From assembly GCF_000016185.1 (NCBI RefSeq), contig NC_011420.2, positions 3,263,001-3,327,000 on the forward strand: DNA of 64,000 nucleotides. Direction: 5' to 3'. Source of the DNA: Rhodospirillum centenum SW. GTDB taxonomy: Bacteria > Pseudomonadota > Alphaproteobacteria > Azospirillales > Azospirillaceae. Below, piece after piece: positions 41,802 through 58,611 of this stretch. Positions within the stretch are counted from its first letter, which is position 1; every line of letters begins with the position of its first letter. Position numbers and translations under genes: made by a program. The notes beneath the pieces are model-generated. The model did no database searches and had not been told where the DNA came from. It saw only the letters and a program-made list of their open reading frames with translations.

Positions 41802-41818
41802 TTGAGAATGATTATCAC
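41802..41818 (+). promoter_or_regulatory. Fur-box-like site upstream of the AraC regulator
   Basis: TTGAGAATGATTATCAC contains the core GAGAATGATTATCA, matching 12 of 19 positions of the consensus GATAATGATAATCATTATC, best in the left two hexamers. A TTG at 41802 is in frame with the regulator but overlaps this site and is rejected as the start. Confidence 0.6.
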
Positions 41819-41855
41819 GGGGTCGGGGGACGGCAGGGAAGCGGATGGAACCGGC

Positions 41856-42857
41856 ATGGCGATACGCTCGCGTCTGATGGAAGGCGAATTCGCCGTGGCG
41901 GACATCGTCCGCGAGGCCGCGGCGCTGGTGCTCCGCACCCCGCCGGCGGAGCCGCCGCCCCTGCCCGACGACCGCCGCCGCATCCTGACCGGCCAGTTCC
42001 GCGGCTGGCTCTGGATGGACGAGGTGCAGCCGGGTCTCGTCGGCTCGGCCAGCGACATGGAATCCGTCTCCGACGCCACCATCGCCCAGACGATCGACCG
42101 CTCCGTCATGGTGGCGGTGCTGCTCCAGGGCCGCACCGGCAGCTTCCGCCCCGAGGCCGGAGAGGAACTGCCCGCCGAACAGGGCCGCGCCCGGGTCACC
42201 GGCTTCGGGGAGGCGCGGCGCTGCGTCCGCCGGCTGCATGCGGGCGAGCGCGGCGTGCGCACCGGCATCACCGTCAGCCCCTGCTTCCTGGAGCAGTTCG
42301 CCGACGTGCTGCCGGGGCGCGAGCTGGACGTGCTGGAGCGCCTGCTGGCGCCGGGCTTCCGCAGCGTCGGGCTGCGCCGCTGCGAGCTGCTGAGCGGGCT
42401 GTCGCGCGGGCTGGTGGCGATGCCCTACGGCGGCTCGCTGGGCCGTCTCTACCGGGAGAGCGCGGTCACCCAGATCCTGTTCCGCACCCTGGAGCTGCTG
42501 CGGGAGGAATGGCCGCTCGTCCGCGCCCTGGGGCGGCGGCAGCACGATGCCGTGCTGCGGGCGCAGGCCGTGCTGGACGCCTCCCTCGTCTCGCCGCCGG
42601 GTACGCTCGACCTCGCCCGTCAGGTCGGGCTGAACCGCAACACGCTCCAGGCCGGGTTCCGGGCCGTGTTCGGCACCACCGTCTTCGGCTATGTCCGCGC
42701 CCGCCGGCTGGCCATGGCGCGGCTGCTGATGGAGGAACAGGGCCTGGGCGCGGCCGAGGCCGGCTACCGCGTCGGCTTCGCCAGCCCCTCCGCCTTCTCC
42801 GCCGCCTACCGCCGCCATTTCGGCGAAACCCCCACGGCAAGGGGCGTGCGGCATTAG
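41856..42857 (+). CDS. AraC-family transcriptional regulator (PchR-like) of the siderophore locus
   Basis: 333-aa regulator. A long N-terminal sensor domain (MEGEFAVADIVREAAALVL to SRGLVAMPYGGSLGRLY) is followed by a C-terminal AraC double helix-turn-helix (about 250-330) with PGTLDLARQVGLNRNTLQAGFRAVFGTTVFGYVRARRL and GYRVGFASPSAFSAAYRRHFGETP. Such proteins activate outer-membrane siderophore receptor genes when bound to the ferric siderophore. The receptor here is 2 kb downstream, beyond a two-gene unit. The ATG at 41856 is chosen with GGAA upstream; ATG 41877 is possible. Confidence 0.88.
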   Translation: MAIRSRLMEGEFAVADIVREAAALVLRTPPAEPPPLPDDRRRILTGQFRGWLWMDEVQPGLVGSASDMESVSDATIAQTIDRSVMVAVLLQGRTGSFRPEAGEELPAEQGRARVTGFGEARRCVRRLHAGERGVRTGITVSPCFLEQFADVLPGRELDVLERLLAPGFRSVGLRRCELLSGLSRGLVAMPYGGSLGRLYRESAVTQILFRTLELLREEWPLVRALGRRQHDAVLRAQAVLDASLVSPPGTLDLARQVGLNRNTLQAGFRAVFGTTVFGYVRARRLAMARLLMEEQGLGAAEAGYRVGFASPSAFSAAYRRHFGETPTARGVRH

Positions 42858-42985: not shown

Positions 42986-43480
42986 ATGATGAATGTCACG
43001 CAACGCATGGAATGCCTCTCGACCGCTTATGTCCAGGCGGTCGCCGCCCAGGCCGGCTTCCAGGTGTCGCGCCCGCCTGTGGATGACGACAGCGTGGACG
43101 GCCAGTTCATGGGGCGGGCGGGCCGACGTCCTCGGCTCGACTTCCAGATCAAGGCCACGGCGCAGCAGGCGTTCATCGGCGCCGACAGGATCACCTTCCC
43201 GCTCTCCCTCAAGAACTATGAGGACCTGCGGGCTGACTGTGTCGTGCCCCGCATCCTGATCGTTCTGGCAATGCCCGAGAACGAAGCGGAGTGGCTGGCA
43301 CAGAGCGAGGCGGAACTGATCCTGCGCCGGTGCGCATACTGGCGTTCGCTCGCCGGGGAACCCGCGACCGGGAACACCACGTCCGTGACGGTGCATATTC
43401 CCCGCGATCGGTTGTTTACTCCCGAATCCCTCACGGACATGATGCGCCGGGTGGAGGCGGAGGAGCCGTTATGGCCGTGA
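42986..43480 (+). CDS. DUF4365-like protein (PD-(D/E)XK nuclease-type fold candidate)
   Basis: 164-aa cytosolic protein. TQRMECLSTAYVQAVAAQAGFQVSRP is the conserved start of DUF4365, and DDDSVDGQ with LDFQIKAT supplies D38 and D52-x-Q54-x-K56, the arrangement expected of a degenerate nuclease active site. FPLSLKNYEDLRADCVVPRILIVLAMPEN is also typical. The DUF4365 family occurs in accessory and defence-type contexts. The stop overlaps the start of the next gene, so the two are translationally coupled. No strong ribosome-binding site is seen; ATG 42986 or 42989 are both possible. Confidence 0.75.
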   Translation: MMNVTQRMECLSTAYVQAVAAQAGFQVSRPPVDDDSVDGQFMGRAGRRPRLDFQIKATAQQAFIGADRITFPLSLKNYEDLRADCVVPRILIVLAMPENEAEWLAQSEAELILRRCAYWRSLAGEPATGNTTSVTVHIPRDRLFTPESLTDMMRRVEAEEPLWP

Positions 43481-44661
43481 TGATCACGGACAGGGAGGTC
43501 TTCGCCGCGCTGTCCCATGTGGACGCGCGGGCCTATCTGCTCGCCCGCGGCTGGCGGGAGGAGGAGCGGATCGGCAACAAGGCCGCCGTCCTTGTCCCGG
43601 ACGGCGCCGATGCGCCGGAGATCCTTCTTCCGCTGCGGGAGGATCTTGGCGACTACGCCCTGCGCCTTGCCGATGCGGTCCGAGTGGTCGCCGCGGTCGA
43701 GGGGCGCGCGGAGACCTCCGTCCTGACCGACTTCAGGATGGCCGGGACGGACGTCATCCGCGTCCGCGCCGGGGAGGCCGCCGCCGACGGCACGCTCTCC
43801 TTCCAGGCGGGCATCGCTGTCCATGAACTCGCCCGCGAGGTGCTGCTCTCGGCCGCGTGCGCAGCACATGCCCCGCGCGCCCTCTACGGCAACCGGAAGC
43901 CCCAGAGCGCCCTCGATTATCTCGAAACGGTGCGCCTCGGGCAGTCGGAGCGGGGGAGCTACGTCGTCACGCTCCTGTCTCCCGTCGATCCCGCGCTGGG
44001 GGGCGGCCAGCCCCGCCTCGGGCCTGAGTTCGAGGACGACCCGTTCGCCCGCATCGTCACCCGCACGCTCCTCCGGGCTCTGCGGGCGACGCGCGACGCC
44101 GTCACGGAGGCGGCTGCCAGCGAGGATTTCGCGGCATTCGAGCGCCGCGTCCGGCACGGGGTCTCCGCCAATCTCTGCGAGGCGCTGGCGAAACTGGTGG
44201 GCGTGGGGGGAACGGTGGAGCTGGGGCTCACCTGGGCCAAGGTCCGGCCCCCCCGTCCCGACGATGCGAAGGGCCCCCTCAAGCTGGACTTCGGTCGCTC
44301 CGCGGCCGGGCTTCTCCAGGAGGCGGCCCGCCAGTTCCGTGTCCGTGAACCCCTTCCGGACCAGGAACTCTCCGGCTGGGTCGTCCGCCTGATGCGACGG
44401 CCTGCGCGGGATGCGCTCGGCTCCGTGCTCGTCAGGGTGATGATCGACGGCAGGCCGCGCTCCATCCGGATCGAGGGGCTGTCCGACAGCGACTACGCCT
44501 TCGTCGCGGCCGCCCATGCCGACCGCAAGGCGATCTCGTTCGAGGGCGATCTGCACAGGCGGGACCGGGCGCAGGAGGTCCGGAACGCCCGGAACTTCGC
44601 CATCGTCGAGGGGGCAGAGGACGAAGAGGCGCCGCCGGCCGACACCGCCGCAGGGGTCTGA
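43471..44661 (+). CDS. Unrecognised 396-aa partner of the DUF4365 protein
   Basis: I do not recognise a domain. It starts MAVMITDREVFAALSHVDARAYLLARGWREEERIGNKAAVLV (a mixed alpha/beta opening), has no signal peptide, no Walker motifs and no transmembrane segment. An arginine-rich, helical middle (residues 180-300) leads to VLVRVMIDGRPRSIRIEGLSDSDYAFVAAAHADRKAISFEGDL, a predicted beta-rich unit, and an acidic tail. ATG 43471 has GGAGG upstream and overlaps the preceding stop by 10 bp; ATG 43480 overlaps it as TGATG. The pair is flanked by iron genes to which it has no evident relation. Confidence 0.75.
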   Translation: MAVMITDREVFAALSHVDARAYLLARGWREEERIGNKAAVLVPDGADAPEILLPLREDLGDYALRLADAVRVVAAVEGRAETSVLTDFRMAGTDVIRVRAGEAAADGTLSFQAGIAVHELAREVLLSAACAAHAPRALYGNRKPQSALDYLETVRLGQSERGSYVVTLLSPVDPALGGGQPRLGPEFEDDPFARIVTRTLLRALRATRDAVTEAAASEDFAAFERRVRHGVSANLCEALAKLVGVGGTVELGLTWAKVRPPRPDDAKGPLKLDFGRSAAGLLQEAARQFRVREPLPDQELSGWVVRLMRRPARDALGSVLVRVMIDGRPRSIRIEGLSDSDYAFVAAAHADRKAISFEGDLHRRDRAQEVRNARNFAIVEGAEDEEAPPADTAAGV

Positions 44662-44798: not shown

Positions 44799-44817
44799 CC
44801 GCTAATGATAACCATTC
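44799..44817 (+). promoter_or_regulatory. Fur box upstream of the TonB-dependent receptor
   Basis: GCTAATGATAACCATTCTC matches 16 of 19 positions of the Fur consensus GATAATGATAATCATTATC. It lies about 100 bp before the receptor start, in the gap after the DUF4365 pair, so the receptor probably has its own iron-repressed promoter. Confidence 0.8.
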
Positions 44818-44919
44818 TCATGCCAGGGGCCCGGGCCCGTGGACGGGGGTGGACGGCCGGCGGTGACCGGGGGGCCGGCGCCCCCGGGCGGTACCGGGCC
44901 GGACAACCAGGGGGTCACG

Positions 44920-47268
44920 GTGTTCAAGATGTGCAGGATTCATGGCGTGCGGGCTTCCGCCGCCGCCATGGCCCTTCTCTGCCTCGCCACGCCGGCGGGG
45001 GCGGCAGGCGCGGCAGGTCCGGCGGGGACGGGCGGCGACCGCGCGGCGGGTGACCGGGCCGCGCGCGACCGGGCCGCCGACGCCCGGGCCGCCGATGCCC
45101 GGGCTGCCGGCGCCCGGACTGCCGATGACGGGATCGAGGAGATCATCGTGGTGGCGACCGGCCGGTCCCGTGCCAGCGCCACCACCAAGACCGACACGCC
45201 GATCATCGAATCGCCGCAGCAGATCTCCATCATCAGCCGCGAGGAGATCGACCGGCGCGCCGCGGCCACGCTGGCCGAGGCGCTGTCCTACACCGCCGGC
45301 GTGCAGGCCTCGCCTTCGGGCGTGGACAGCCGCGTGGACGAGGTGAGCGTGCGCGGCTTCGGCGCCGCCGGCTTCTCCTCCAACAACAACTTCGTGGACG
45401 GGCTGCGCATGGCCGCGGGCGGCGAGGGCACCTGGATCCGGCCCGCCTTCGACACCTTCGCCCTGGACCGGGTCGAGGTGCTGAAGGGACCGTCGGGGGC
45501 CCTCTACGGCCAGTCGGCGCCCGGCGGCGTCGTCAACGTGGTGACCAAGCGCCCGACCTTCTCGCCGCACGGCGAGATCCTGCTCCAGGGCGTGGGCTAC
45601 ACCGATCTCGGCCAGTGGAGCGCCCAGGCCGGCGCCGACACCGGCGGCGCGCTCACGGCGGACGGCAGCGTGGCCGGGCGCTTCGTCGCCCTGGCCCGGC
45701 AGGGCAAGACGCAGATCGACGGGGTCGGGACCGACCGCTACTACGCCTCCCCCAGCGTCACCTGGCAGCCCACCGCGCGCACGAGCTGGACCGTGATCGG
45801 CCAGTACCAGCGCGACGAGGGCGGCTCCAGCTTCCAGTTCCTGCCGGCGCTCGGCACGCTCTACCGCAGCAACGGGCGCCTGCTGGACAAGGAGACCTAT
45901 CTGGGCGAGCCGGACTGGAACCGCTACGACCGCAACCAGTACATGCTGGGCTCGCTGTTCGAGCACGCCCTGACCGACACGGTCACGCTGCGGAACAACG
46001 CCCGCTACATGCATGTGGACATCGTCTACCGCGGCGTCGTCCCGTCGGGTAACACCCTGGCCACCTGCCCGCCCACCCTCGCCGGCTGCCTTCCCGGCCG
46101 GACGCTGAACCGCCGCGCCGTGCAGGGCGACGGCGACACGGACGGCGTGGCCGTGGACACCCAGCTCGAAGCGCGGGTCACGACCGGGCCGGTCGCGCAC
46201 ACGCTGCTGGCCGGCGTCGATCACTTCCACACCGAATGGGAGCACACCTACGCCCTGGTGCGGTCCACGCTGGTGCTGCCGGTCCTGGACATCTTCGATC
46301 CGGTCCCGCGCGGGGCGGCCGGCTTCGCCGGCGCGCTGACGCCGCTGATCCCGACCGAGACGACCAGCCGGCAGACCGGCCTCTACGCCCAGGACCAGAT
46401 CAGCATCGGCAATCTGCGCGTGACCCTCGGCGGCCGGAAGGACTGGGCCGAGGACGAGAGCCACAACCCCGTCACCGGCGGAAAGCTGGACACGAAGAAC
46501 GACGCCTTCACCTGGCGGGCCGGTGCCGTCTGGCTGTTCGACAACGGGCTGGCGCCCTATGTCAGCTATTCGGAGAGCTTCCAGCCGCTGCTGTCCAACC
46601 GCGATCCGGCGACCAGCCAGCTCGACGGCGGCAAGCCCTACGAGCCCACCACCGGCCAGCAGGTCGAGGCCGGCCTGCGCTACCAGCGCGGCAACAACAT
46701 CTATGTCACGCTGGGCGCCTATCAGGTGAAGCAGCAGAACATCCTGACCGCCGACCCGGAGGGCAGGCTCTGCGGCGTCTCCGTCTGCCAGGTGCAGACG
46801 GGCGAGGGCCGCGTGCGCGGGCTGGAGCTGGAGGGCAAGGCGACCCTGCCCTGGGGCATGGCGGTGATCGGCACCCTGACCCGCAGCGACGGCGAGATCA
46901 CGAAGACCACCATCGCCAGCCAGCGCGGCAACACCCTGCCGCAGCTTCCGGAGTGGATGGCGTCGCTGTTCGTGGACCAGCATTTCCAGACCGGCCCGCT
47001 CCAGGGCGTCGGCCTGGGCGGCGGCGTGCGCTACACCGGCGAGAGCGTGGGCGACACGGCGAACACGCTGGAGATCCCCGACTACACGCTGTTCGACCTG
47101 TTCCTGCGCTACGATTTCGGCGCCGCCGACCCGGGGCTGGACGGGCTCTCCGTCGCCGTCAACGCCCACAACGTCGCCGACAGGCGCTATGTGGCGAGCT
47201 GCATCGCGGCCGGCTGCTACATCGGGCAGGGCCGGACCCTGACCGCCCGCGTGCAGTACAAGTGGTGA
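44920..47268 (+). CDS. TonB-dependent siderophore receptor
   Basis: Outer-membrane ferric-siderophore receptor of about 782 aa. A signal peptide (ASAAAMALLCLATPAGAAG) and an Arg/Ala/Asp repeat linker precede the TonB-box-like IEEIIVVATG. The plug domain has TDTPIIESPQQISIISREEI, VSVRGFGAAGFSSNNNFVDGL and GPSGALYGQSAPGGVVNVVTKRP. The 22-strand barrel ends in aromatic VQYKW. GTG 44920 is chosen with GGGGG upstream; ATG 44929 is possible. The ligand cannot be told. The AraC gene upstream and PepSY genes downstream support siderophore uptake and iron release. Confidence 0.93.
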   Translation: MFKMCRIHGVRASAAAMALLCLATPAGAAGAAGPAGTGGDRAAGDRAARDRAADARAADARAAGARTADDGIEEIIVVATGRSRASATTKTDTPIIESPQQISIISREEIDRRAAATLAEALSYTAGVQASPSGVDSRVDEVSVRGFGAAGFSSNNNFVDGLRMAAGGEGTWIRPAFDTFALDRVEVLKGPSGALYGQSAPGGVVNVVTKRPTFSPHGEILLQGVGYTDLGQWSAQAGADTGGALTADGSVAGRFVALARQGKTQIDGVGTDRYYASPSVTWQPTARTSWTVIGQYQRDEGGSSFQFLPALGTLYRSNGRLLDKETYLGEPDWNRYDRNQYMLGSLFEHALTDTVTLRNNARYMHVDIVYRGVVPSGNTLATCPPTLAGCLPGRTLNRRAVQGDGDTDGVAVDTQLEARVTTGPVAHTLLAGVDHFHTEWEHTYALVRSTLVLPVLDIFDPVPRGAAGFAGALTPLIPTETTSRQTGLYAQDQISIGNLRVTLGGRKDWAEDESHNPVTGGKLDTKNDAFTWRAGAVWLFDNGLAPYVSYSESFQPLLSNRDPATSQLDGGKPYEPTTGQQVEAGLRYQRGNNIYVTLGAYQVKQQNILTADPEGRLCGVSVCQVQTGEGRVRGLELEGKATLPWGMAVIGTLTRSDGEITKTTIASQRGNTLPQLPEWMASLFVDQHFQTGPLQGVGLGGGVRYTGESVGDTANTLEIPDYTLFDLFLRYDFGAADPGLDGLSVAVNAHNVADRRYVASCIAAGCYIGQGRTLTARVQYKW
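45040..45129 (+). repeat. 15-bp degenerate tandem repeat in the receptor N-terminus
   Basis: Six units with period 15 (for example CGGGCCGCCGACGCC at 45070, CGGGCCGCCGATGCC at 45085) encode a five-residue RAADA-type motif between the signal peptide and the TonB box. Confidence 0.75.
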
Positions 47269-55890: not shown

Positions 55891-58611
55891 TCAGGCCCCG
55901 ATCTCGATGGTGACGGTGGTGCCCAGGCCGGGGGCGGTCTCGATGGCCAGGTTGCCGGCGTGCAGGTCCACCAGGGACTTGGCGATGGGCAGGCCCAGCC
56001 CCGTGCCCTCGACCGCCGCACGGGTCTGCGCCACCTGCCGGAACGGCTCCATGGCGGTCAGCACCTCTTCCGGCGTCATGCCGGGGCCGGTGTCGCGCAC
56101 GGTGAAGACGGCCCCGCCGCCGGCCAGCGCCCGTGCCCGCACATCGACCCGGCCGCCGGGCGGGGTGAACTTCACGGCGTTGCCGATGATGTTCAGCAGG
56201 ATCTGGCGCAGCCGCAGCGCGTCCGCCGTCAGCGGCAGGGGCGACTCCGCCTGCACCTCCAGCAGCACCTCGCCGCGCACCGCCCGCGGCAGCAGCATGC
56301 CGACGCATTCCGCCGCCAGGATGCCGGCGTCCAGCGACTCCGGCGACAGCTCCATCCGCCCGGCCTCGATGCGCGACAGGTCCAGCACGTCGTTGACCAT
56401 GCGCAGCAGGTGCTCGCCCGAGGCGTGGATGCTCTGCACATAGTCCTGGATGCGCGGCGGCAGCGTCCCCGCCATGCCGGACATCATCAGGTCGGAGAAG
56501 CCGATGATGGCGTTCAGCGGAGTCCGCAGCTCGTGGCTCATGTTCGCCAGGAAGCGGGACTTCGCCTCGTTGCTGGCGGCGAGCTGGTCGCTCAGCTCCT
56601 TCACATGGCGCAGGTGGCGCAGCATCATGTCGCTGATGGCATGGCGCAGCGAGGTGGCGATCTCGTCCGCCCAGGTCGGCCAGGGGGCGGCATGGCCGCG
56701 CCGTTCCTCCACCCAGCGGTCGAAGGAGATGCGCGGCATCGGCCGCTGCCCGGCCGCGCCCAGCGGCTTCGCCGGGTCGCCGCCCCAGGTGATCTGCCGC
56801 GGCTCCTCCGGCCGGGTCCACATCACGAAGTCGCCGCCCGACAGGCGCAGCGCCAGCAGGCCGCTGGCCTTCTGGCGGTAGGCGGTGGCGTCGGGAAAGA
56901 CCGAGGACAGGCTGCTGGTGCGGAACAGGCCGGCGCTGCCCCAGCGCGGCTCCAGCCAGGCCCGCAGTGCCGCCACCTCCGCCGGCGGCGGGCAGTCGCC
57001 CACCGTCAGCAGATGACCGTCGATGGAGAGCGCTGCCCCGGTGGCGCCGAACAGGTCGGTCAGCCGCGTCGCCTGCTGCGTCAGCGCCGGCTCCACCGCG
57101 TCGGAGGAGGCCATCTGGACCATCAGCGCCGTCAGGACGGCGTGGTCCACCTGCCGGCCGCGCATCGCCTCCGCCCGCTCCACCGCGGCGATGCTGAGCG
57201 CCACCGCCTCCACCACCGTCATGGCGGCGGAGCGGCGGGGGATGGCGACATGGTGCGGCTGCCGGTGGTGCGCCGCCACCATGCCCCAGAGCCGCCCTTC
57301 CACCAGGATGGAGAAGGACATGGACGCGGTCACGCCCATGTTGCGCAGATACTGGAGGTGGACGGGGCTCAGGCTGCGGTGGCGGGAGAAGGACAGGTCC
57401 AGCGGCTCCGTCCCCTCGATCCGGTGGACCGGCACCGGCACGTAGTCGCGGTCGGGGACATGGCGCGACAGCGACTGGCTGTACAGTTCGCGCGCCTGCC
57501 GCGGGATGTCCGAGGCGGGGAAGTGCAGTCCGGCGAAGGACTGCGGCCAGTCCTCCACCTTGTCCTCGGCGATCACCTCGCCGTGCCAGTCGGCATCGAA
57601 GCGGTAGACGATGGCGCGCTCGAACCCGGTCAGGACCCGCACCGAGCGGGCGCAGGCCTGCGCCAGCCCGGTCAGGGAGGACGCCTGCCGGATCACGGCC
57701 ACGTCCGCCTCCACCGCCGCCAGCAGGGAGCACACCGGCGCCTCGCCCGGACGGGCGGTCAGGGGCTCCAGGTCCAGCACCACGCAGCCGCCGCTGCGGT
57801 GGGCGCGGATGTCGATGCGCCGCCCCCGGGCCATCTCCCCCCGCCAGGACCGGGAGGTCCGGTCCGGCAGCCAGTCCCGCAGCGCCGCCAGGGGACCGGC
57901 GTCCAGCACCTCCCCCAGCGGCCGGCCCAGCGGCGGGCGGGCGCAGTCCAGGAGTGCCTGGGCGTTGTCGCTGGCGGCGCAGACCGTCCAGTCCCGCGGA
58001 TCGACGGCCAGGACCGCGCCCCAGGGCTGGATGGCGCCGACCCGGCGGATGTCCTCCTGCTCGCAGACGGAGAAGTCCACCACCTCGCCGGTGACCGACG
58101 CGGTGTGTGCGGCCGGCGCCTCGGGCGCCGGTCCCGGCGGGCGCAGGTCCTCCAGCTTGCGCACGAAGATCCAGTAGCGGTCGGGCACGCCCGCGTTCTG
58201 CATGCGGATCTGCACCCGCACCGGCGCCATCTGGAAATCGAAGACGAAGTCGAAGCGGGCATCCAGCGTGCCGGAGGTCACACCGTCCATGAAGCGGCCG
58301 CTGAAGGCCGGGATGTTCGTGCAGGGCGCCACCTCGGTGAAGAAGTTGCGCCCGATGACCCGTTCGGGGATGCGGCCGCTGAGCCGGCTTTCCGTCCTGT
58401 TGTAACGGTGGATGACCCCGCTGCCGTCCACCTGGATGGCGCCGACCGGCAAGGCATCGAACTCGGCCGTCCCCATCCCGTCGATGGTGCCGCGGATCTG
58501 CTCGGTGAAGGGGCCGAAATCGTCGGTGGTCCGGTCCGGCACGACGGGCTCGTCTCTGGGGTTTCCGCCGATAGTAGCGCCGGCACCCCCCTGACGAGAA
58601 GGAGGTAACAC
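55891..58611 (-). CDS. ppr: PYP-bacteriophytochrome hybrid histidine kinase (Ppr-type photoreceptor)
   Basis: 906-aa sensor kinase. Residues about 46-155 are photoactive yellow protein: Y70, E74, R80 and C97 align, with constant offset 28, to Y42, E46, R52 and C69 of Halorhodospira PYP, so a p-coumaroyl chromophore is expected. C183 in FSVCEQEDI is the candidate biliverdin cysteine before the PAS domain (GAIQPWGAVLAV). The GAF domain has FPASDIPRQARELY and the PHY tongue is SFDRWVEERRGHAAPW. HisKA has H693 in MSHELRTPLN, and HATPase_c ends in DTGPGMTPEE and GTGLGLPIAKSLV. The start is uncertain (GTG 58611, GTG 58542 or ATG 58476). The first-described Ppr is from R. centenum and affects blue-light-dependent chalcone synthase expression. 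Confidence 0.95.
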   Translation of the reverse strand: MLPPSRQGGAGATIGGNPRDEPVVPDRTTDDFGPFTEQIRGTIDGMGTAEFDALPVGAIQVDGSGVIHRYNRTESRLSGRIPERVIGRNFFTEVAPCTNIPAFSGRFMDGVTSGTLDARFDFVFDFQMAPVRVQIRMQNAGVPDRYWIFVRKLEDLRPPGPAPEAPAAHTASVTGEVVDFSVCEQEDIRRVGAIQPWGAVLAVDPRDWTVCAASDNAQALLDCARPPLGRPLGEVLDAGPLAALRDWLPDRTSRSWRGEMARGRRIDIRAHRSGGCVVLDLEPLTARPGEAPVCSLLAAVEADVAVIRQASSLTGLAQACARSVRVLTGFERAIVYRFDADWHGEVIAEDKVEDWPQSFAGLHFPASDIPRQARELYSQSLSRHVPDRDYVPVPVHRIEGTEPLDLSFSRHRSLSPVHLQYLRNMGVTASMSFSILVEGRLWGMVAAHHRQPHHVAIPRRSAAMTVVEAVALSIAAVERAEAMRGRQVDHAVLTALMVQMASSDAVEPALTQQATRLTDLFGATGAALSIDGHLLTVGDCPPPAEVAALRAWLEPRWGSAGLFRTSSLSSVFPDATAYRQKASGLLALRLSGGDFVMWTRPEEPRQITWGGDPAKPLGAAGQRPMPRISFDRWVEERRGHAAPWPTWADEIATSLRHAISDMMLRHLRHVKELSDQLAASNEAKSRFLANMSHELRTPLNAIIGFSDLMMSGMAGTLPPRIQDYVQSIHASGEHLLRMVNDVLDLSRIEAGRMELSPESLDAGILAAECVGMLLPRAVRGEVLLEVQAESPLPLTADALRLRQILLNIIGNAVKFTPPGGRVDVRARALAGGGAVFTVRDTGPGMTPEEVLTAMEPFRQVAQTRAAVEGTGLGLPIAKSLVDLHAGNLAIETAPGLGTTVTIEIGA

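What the first reader, a model, noticed from the sequence alone, without database searches (positions are those of the whole stretch)
42986..44661. Coupled DUF4365 plus unknown 396-aa gene pair wedged into a siderophore locus: candidate new two-gene system
Seen: two overlapping genes (10-bp overlap, or TGATG coupling) sit between an AraC regulator and its likely receptor, each of which has its own Fur-like site. Known: DUF4365 proteins carry a PD-(D/E)XK-type core (here D38, D52, Q54, K56) and often occur in accessory or defence neighbourhoods. Inference: the pair could be a nuclease-effector plus sensor or inhibitor module, unrelated to iron. The second protein has no domain I recognise. There are no transposase, integrase or repeat boundaries, so how it arrived is unclear.
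Basis: partly seen in the sequence, partly recalled or inferred. Interest (0 to 1): 0.75.

Follow-up and report, generated by a model that had tools for sequence, protein, structure and literature searches.

The report
Mobile two-gene nuclease defence candidate (PDC-M02)
Two tightly linked genes inserted in an iron-uptake locus belong to a widespread mobile pair that PADLOC already lists as an untested anti-phage candidate: one encodes a DNA-cutting enzyme related to the Argonaute-linked SPARDA nuclease, the other a partner that ends in a single-stranded-DNA-binding type domain and is probably its sensor or switch.

Summary
Gene A (42986-43480, 164 aa) is DUF4365 and gene B (43471-44661, 396 aa) overlaps it by 10 bp. 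They lie between an AraC regulator and a TonB receptor, each with a Fur-like site. The pair is not new: both proteins match PADLOC's unvalidated "phage defence candidate" PDC-M02 (A E=1.6e-58, B E=6.9e-125). B has no Pfam domain, but its predicted model ends in an OB fold (residues 295-380). B is found with A, or a visible A remnant, in all 26 loci located through B. The pair is rare, moves on plasmids and temperate phages, and often neighbours R-M or Septu genes (71 PADLOC families against 2 in control loci). Two relatives show the empty AraC-receptor site, so it is an insertion unrelated to iron. New here: cyanobacterial plasmids carry a mini-B with only the N-terminal domain and the OB fold. 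I read this as a guide-free DREN nuclease controlled by a nucleic-acid-binding partner. Nuclease fold and pairing are shown or predicted; sensing and defence are inferred.

The parts
42986..43480 (+). Gene A: DUF4365 / DREN-type PD-(D/E)XK nuclease, 164 aa (PDC-M02A)
   Evidence: Pfam PF14280 E=3.7e-26; PADLOC PDC-M02A E=1.6e-58; model pLDDT 85.3, pTM 0.83; SPARDA DREN fold Z 13.6, 138 aligned, rmsd 3.5
43097..43099 (+). Codon of D38, catalytic aspartate (= D41 of NbaSPARDA DREN, by order in the D...QxK motif)
   Evidence: Invariant in 19 of 19 and in a second set of 18; Mg-binding D41 in PMC12205087
43145..43153 (+). Codons of Q54-I-K56, QxK catalytic motif (= Q60/K62 of NbaSPARDA, Q62/K64 of TmuRE)
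   Evidence: Invariant in both alignments; catalytic roles in PMC12205087 and PMC10810196
43471..44661 (+). Gene B: 396-aa partner (PDC-M02B)
   Evidence: PADLOC PDC-M02B E=6.9e-125 over residues 1-382; no Pfam, no NCBIfam match; model pLDDT 82.9, pTM 0.70
43471..43746 (+). B N-terminal domain, residues 1-92 (helix-3 strands-helix), the part kept in every version of B seen
   Evidence: Profile of full-length B residues 1-92 hits all 7 short partners, E 1e-21 to 1e-26; secondary structure
43747..44346 (+). B middle region, residues 93-292; absent from cyanobacterial mini-B
   Evidence: No significant hit of the middle profile in short partners, best E 0.08; alignment
44347..44616 (+). B C-terminal OB-fold domain, residues about 293-382
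   Evidence: VIA matches at residues 293-391 to SSB, PriB, RecG wedge and RecO OB domains, Z about 8-10; OB profile hits the six mini-B at E 1e-16 to 1e-19
43471..43480 (+). 10-bp overlap of A and B reading frames (translational coupling)
   Evidence: Direct sequence; 22 of 32 homologous pairs overlap by 4 bp, range -5 to +11
41802..42857 (+). Flanking AraC-family regulator (host locus, not part of the module); true start probably downstream of 41802
   Evidence: HTH_18 E=2.8e-20; orthologue directly before the receptor in two relatives
44839..47268 (+). Flanking TonB-dependent receptor (host locus, not part of the module)
   Evidence: TonB_dep_Rec and Plug; 77% identical orthologues without the pair upstream
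44801..44819 (+). Fur-like site of the receptor
   Evidence: 16 of 19 to the Fur consensus
41804..41822 (-). Fur-like site of the AraC gene
   Evidence: 13 of 19 to the Fur consensus

Best explanation
A mobile anti-phage or anti-mobile-element module of the PADLOC candidate kind PDC-M02. A is a small metal-dependent nuclease of the DREN/DUF4365 class. B is its obligate partner: the N-terminal domain, constant in every version, probably docks to or holds A, and the C-terminal OB fold, helped in most members by the middle domain, probably binds single-stranded or otherwise unusual nucleic acid made during phage replication or DNA entry. Binding would cluster or release A, which then cuts DNA and clears the invader or stops the infected cell. 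Shown by sequence or prediction: the nuclease fold and invariant catalytic residues, the OB fold (predicted), the obligate coupled pairing, mobility, the defence neighbourhood. Inferred: that A cuts DNA, that B contacts A, what B senses, and the outcome. The siderophore locus is only the landing site.
For: PADLOC PDC-M02A/B matches over nearly full length. A model: best structural matches are SPARDA nuclease subunits (Foldseek E 6e-7; VIA Z 13.6), then Hjc resolvases (Z 9.8). D38, Q54, K56 invariant in two alignments, matching D41/Q60/K62 whose mutation abolishes or impairs SPARDA nuclease activity, D41A also defence (PMC12205087). The SPARDA DREN domain alone is monomeric and inactive and needs a partner-driven tetramer, which suits a separate control protein. 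B ends in an OB fold. All 26 loci found through B carry A or a visible remnant. Rare and scattered: 6 of 82 in the order, 5 of 385 in the class, 10 of 398 in the phylum. On plasmids, Leptospira phage LE1 and M. abscessus prophages. Neighbours: type I R-M operon with an AbiJ-type gene, type IIG MmeI, Septu ptuAB, a SIR2-like gene, cas3, DUF262 genes; 71 PADLOC families in 94 neighbour proteins against 2 in 92 control proteins. Empty AraC-receptor site in two relatives.
Against: No phage assay exists; PADLOC lists it as a candidate and the searched literature does not mention it. Several copies, this one included, sit alone among housekeeping genes. An OB fold can also bind protein or RNA. The N-terminal and middle domains of B have no identified fold. 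Nuclease activity of this A, and any A-B contact, are untested. The 71-to-2 comparison counts families, not independent loci: at least 4 of 15 loci carry the strong hits.
Confidence: 0.66

Rival explanations
1. Toxin-antitoxin pair: A is a toxic nuclease, B only its antitoxin, and the module serves to keep plasmids and prophages in place rather than to sense phages.
For: Two small coupled genes on many plasmids and prophages, always together; in two loci A is truncated while B is kept, as when a toxin is lost first.
Against: The nuclease gene comes first and the partner is a large protein with an OB fold, unlike most antitoxins (established knowledge); defence neighbours are over-represented; the SPARDA DREN domain alone shows no detectable activity. 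TA and defence are not exclusive.
Confidence: 0.17
2. Modification-dependent or structure-dependent restriction: B binds the target DNA directly and brings A to it, with no activation step or cell death.
For: A also resembles Hjc resolvases and, weakly, DpnI; B has a DNA-binding type fold related to the RecG wedge; pairs lie inside or beside R-M operons.
Against: A has no recognition domain; B has no known modified-base-binding domain by Pfam.
Confidence: 0.1
3. A DNA repair or recombination accessory (Hjc-like nuclease plus SSB/RecO-like protein), not defence.
For: Both folds occur in recombination proteins.
Against: Very patchy distribution, presence on phages and plasmids, and position among defence genes.
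Confidence: 0.04
4. A component of the siderophore locus.
For: Same strand, between the regulator and the receptor.
Against: The two closest orthologous loci lack it; homologous pairs lie in unrelated places such as ffh-rpsP, cytochrome oxidase genes and phages.
Confidence: 0.01

Closest known systems
PADLOC candidate system PDC-M02 (PDC-M02A + PDC-M02B)
   Same: Both proteins match near full length with strong scores; same gene order and coupling.
   Different: Nothing essential; this is an ordinary full-length member. PADLOC's entry gives no mechanism; the OB fold and mini-B are described here.
SPARDA (short Argonaute + DREN-APAZ; NbaSPARDA, XauSPARDA, TmuRE-Ago)
   Same: Same nuclease fold and D...QxK catalytic residues; two-gene module; suggests a nuclease held idle until a partner assembles it.
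   Different: No APAZ domain on A, no Argonaute gene next to it; partner B carries an OB fold and, as far as seen, no guide-loading part.
Archaeal Holliday junction resolvase Hjc
   Same: Related PD-(D/E)XK fold (VIA Z 9.8).
   Different: No partner gene, housekeeping recombination role, and lower similarity than SPARDA.
SSB / PriB / RecO / RecG-wedge OB domains
   Same: Fold of the last 85 residues or so of B.
   Different: Sequence identity about 9-18%; B is a three-part protein dedicated to a nuclease gene.

Membership tests
PDC-M02 (PADLOC-DB 2.0.0) | A matches a PDC-M02A model | tested here: met
   PDLC04278 E=1.6e-58, residues 2-160
PDC-M02 (PADLOC-DB 2.0.0) | B matches a PDC-M02B model | tested here: met
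   PDLC04298 E=6.9e-125, residues 1-382 of 396
PDC-M02 (PADLOC-DB 2.0.0) | Genes adjacent, same strand | tested here: met
   10-bp overlap; constant in homologues
PDC-M02 (PADLOC-DB 2.0.0) | Protects against phage | not testable with these tools
   Candidate only; no paper found naming it
DUF4365 / DREN nuclease | Domain above Pfam cut-off | tested here: met
   92.3 bits, cut-off 24.3
DUF4365 / DREN nuclease | Fold and D...QxK active site | tested here: met
   Predicted model matches SPARDA nuclease Z 13.6; D38, Q54, K56 invariant
DUF4365 / DREN nuclease | Metal-dependent nucleic-acid cleavage | not testable with these tools
   Needs purified protein
SPARDA | Nuclease domain fused to APAZ | tested here: not met
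   A is 164 aa and the DREN fold covers residues 3-160
SPARDA | Adjacent short Argonaute gene | tested here: not met
   Neighbours are AraC regulator, B and TonB receptor; B has no Argonaute match in Pfam at E<=1
SPARDA | B has an APAZ- or MID/PIWI-like fold | tested here: inconclusive
   Structure search was filled by OB-fold hits; residues 1-290 barely tested
Toxin-antitoxin system | A toxic alone, B neutralises it | not testable with these tools
   Needs expression experiment
Iron-regulated siderophore locus | Pair conserved with the AraC-receptor locus | tested here: not met
   Two relatives with AraC (59%) and receptor (77-78%) orthologues lack the pair; about 190-bp gap

The most novel reading that the evidence does not exclude
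PDC-M02 is an Argonaute-free, guide-free cousin of SPARDA: the same DREN nuclease is switched on by an OB-fold nucleic-acid sensor instead of a guided Argonaute. B is modular, with a constant N-terminal adaptor and exchangeable sensor ends (full-length, mini-B with only the OB fold, and a version with a helical end in Azospirillum lipoferum). The mini version would be one of the smallest sensor-nuclease defence modules, about 1 kb.
Probability: 0.4. Interest if true: 0.6.

Novelty: new member of a known kind. Interest (0 to 1): 0.42.

Why it matters
In the papers found here, DREN nucleases have been studied only as part of Argonaute systems. A widespread family that pairs the same nuclease with a non-Argonaute, OB-fold partner would show how one effector is wired to different sensors. 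The compact cyanobacterial mini version makes the question easy to test by reconstitution. It also shows that a candidate defence module can land alone between core genes, away from defence islands.

Tried and rejected
Iron role: rejected by the empty site. New unlisted system: rejected by PADLOC. D52 as catalytic: rejected by the alignment. NCBIfam: no match. Pfam on B and on 23 homologues: nothing above chance, and on other homologues and short partners likewise. PDB sequence profile with B: nothing. Pattern scans of genome contigs and viral contigs with B found nothing; whole-genome and tblastn searches worked. B residues 1-290: the Foldseek/VIA rows are filled by the OB domain, so absence of matches there means little; the helix-3 strands-helix order of residues 16-77 recalls dsRBD/HicA arrangements, an untested impression. 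Foldseek against viral models gives a whole-length match to a Leptospira phage LE1 protein, which is simply the homologous B. Target-site duplications or integrase at the window's insertion: the empty sites are too diverged to place the borders.

Full report
OBSERVATION. A runs 42986-43480 (164 aa), B 43471-44661 (396 aa), overlapping by 10 bp. A carries DUF4365 (PF14280, E=3.7e-26); B has no Pfam family; the flanks are an AraC-family regulator and a TonB-dependent receptor, each with a Fur-like site. The window lies in a 4.36-Mb single-contig genome with no second copy of B or of DUF4365.

IDENTITY. Both proteins match PADLOC-DB models of the candidate system PDC-M02: A with PDC-M02A (E=1.6e-58) and B with PDC-M02B (E=6.9e-125 over residues 1-382). 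PADLOC's PDCs are unvalidated candidates found by a guilt-by-embedding approach (PMC12988326; called unpublished candidates in PMC11811056). No open-access paper in the library names PDC-M02. The pair is therefore a member of a listed but uncharacterised kind.

THE NUCLEASE. A model built from 13 homologues has pLDDT 85.3 and pTM 0.83. Its best structural matches are the nuclease subunits of SPARDA (Foldseek E=6e-7; VIA Z 13.6, rmsd 3.5, 138 residues), followed by Hjc resolvases (Z 9.8). D38, Q54 and K56 are invariant in 19 homologues and in a second set of 18 that adds 13 further loci, phage and mini-pair members included. They correspond to D41, Q60 and K62 of NbaSPARDA; D41A and Q60A abolish and K62A impairs the nuclease there, and D41A abolishes defence in vivo (PMC12205087). 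TmuRE uses Q62 and K64 (PMC10810196).

THE PARTNER. The B model (16 homologues, pLDDT 82.9, pTM 0.70) ends in an OB fold at residues about 295-380, matching SSB, PriB, RecO and RecG-wedge domains with VIA Z about 8-10 and Foldseek E around 0.01. This is a fold match at about 9-18% identity; it shows a shape, not a function. Residues 1-290 are essentially untested by these searches.

A MINI VERSION. Searching with A instead of B turned up plasmids of Nostoc, Tolypothrix and Calothrix where A is followed, with a 4-bp overlap, by a 175-181-aa protein. Profiles cut from full-length B show that these consist of the N-terminal domain (E 1e-22 to 1e-26) joined directly to the OB fold (E 1e-16 to 1e-19), without the middle 200 residues (alignment). 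In Azospirillum lipoferum the partner keeps the N-terminal domain but has a different end. The N-terminal domain is thus the constant companion of the nuclease; the rest varies. That it docks A is my inference.

PAIRING AND SPREAD. Of 26 loci found through B, all carry A or a visible remnant: intact in most, cut by a contig end in two (L039, L043), interrupted next to an IS6 transposase in Pigmentibacter (L007), truncated in G546 (L045), degenerate in G600. In 32 measured pairs 22 overlap by 4 bp and the range is -5 to +11. The pair is rare and scattered: 6 of 82 genomes of the order, 5 of 385 of the class, 10 of 398 of the phylum, with identities to the window's B of 18-41%. It occurs on plasmids, on Leptospira phage LE1 and on M. 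abscessus prophages.

NEIGHBOURHOOD. In G618 the pair lies inside a type I R-M operon with an AbiJ-type gene; in G358 beside an MmeI-like type IIG enzyme; in G116 beside Septu ptuAB; in G501 beside a SIR2-like gene; in LE1 beside a type IIG enzyme; in Streptomyces aurantiacus beside cas3; in Entomospira beside three DUF262 genes. As a control, 94 proteins within 5 kb of 15 pairs and 92 proteins from other places in the same genomes were scanned against PADLOC at E<=1e-20: 71 families against 2. Families overlap, so this is a contrast, not a rate; at least four of 15 loci carry the strong hits. Other copies, like the window's, stand alone among core genes, for example between ffh and rpsP in G546 (gene names from sequence recognition).

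THE LANDING SITE. Two relatives (G069, G076) have the AraC orthologue (59%) followed directly by the receptor orthologue (77-78%) and the same downstream genes, with a gap of about 190 bp instead of 1,981 bp. The pair is an insertion, and an iron role is not supported. A is poorer in G+C (65%) than its flanks (72-74%); B is not (72%).

MECHANISM. Most likely B keeps A idle and, on binding nucleic acid peculiar to infection or DNA entry, assembles or releases it to cut DNA. [quoted passage not shown] the separate B may play that part here. Toxin-antitoxin action is the strongest rival. Catalysis, contact between A and B, ligand and outcome are all untested.

VERDICT. A real, mobile, probably defensive nuclease module, already catalogued as PDC-M02. 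What is added here is the link to the SPARDA nuclease, the OB fold, the mini version and the evidence of insertion.

Noticed in passing
L066:4349-4903 (Azospirillum lipoferum 4B plasmid AZO_p3): Partner of DUF4365 keeps the B N-terminal domain but its helical end gives a sub-threshold match (E 0.016) to the Acb2/Tad1 hairpin domain; probably chance, but Acb2/Tad1 bind immune signalling nucleotides.
   Followed up: partly
L007:5300-6010 (Pigmentibacter ruber plasmid): A appears disrupted by transposase-like sequence (an IS6 transposase is annotated nearby) while B is intact.
   Followed up: partly
L045:6152-9782 (G546): The pair, with A reduced to a C-terminal remnant, sits between ffh and rpsP-rimM-trmD, normally a tight core gene order.
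   Followed up: partly
L038:4162-5361 (G116): B closest to the window's (41% overall, 51% over residues 4-297) loses similarity after about residue 297, as if the OB domain were frameshifted or replaced; Septu ptuAB lie next to it.
   Followed up: no
L061:2807-5590 (Leptospira phage LE1, LE1-0039): Gene annotated as hypothetical next to the pair is a type IIG restriction enzyme-methyltransferase by PADLOC (E about 0), so this temperate phage carries two neighbouring defence-type modules.
   Followed up: partly
L046:5972-6346 (G501): Short integrase fragment resembling the N-terminus of integron integrases upstream of the pair, and a SIR2_2 protein directly downstream of B.
   Followed up: no
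window 55891-58611, minus strand: 906-aa protein that looks like a bacteriophytochrome histidine kinase, not tested.
   Followed up: no
window 41802-41860: The TTG start listed for the AraC gene lies on its Fur-like site; homology to relatives starts at residue 12, so the real start is probably about 30-60 bp downstream.
   Followed up: partly
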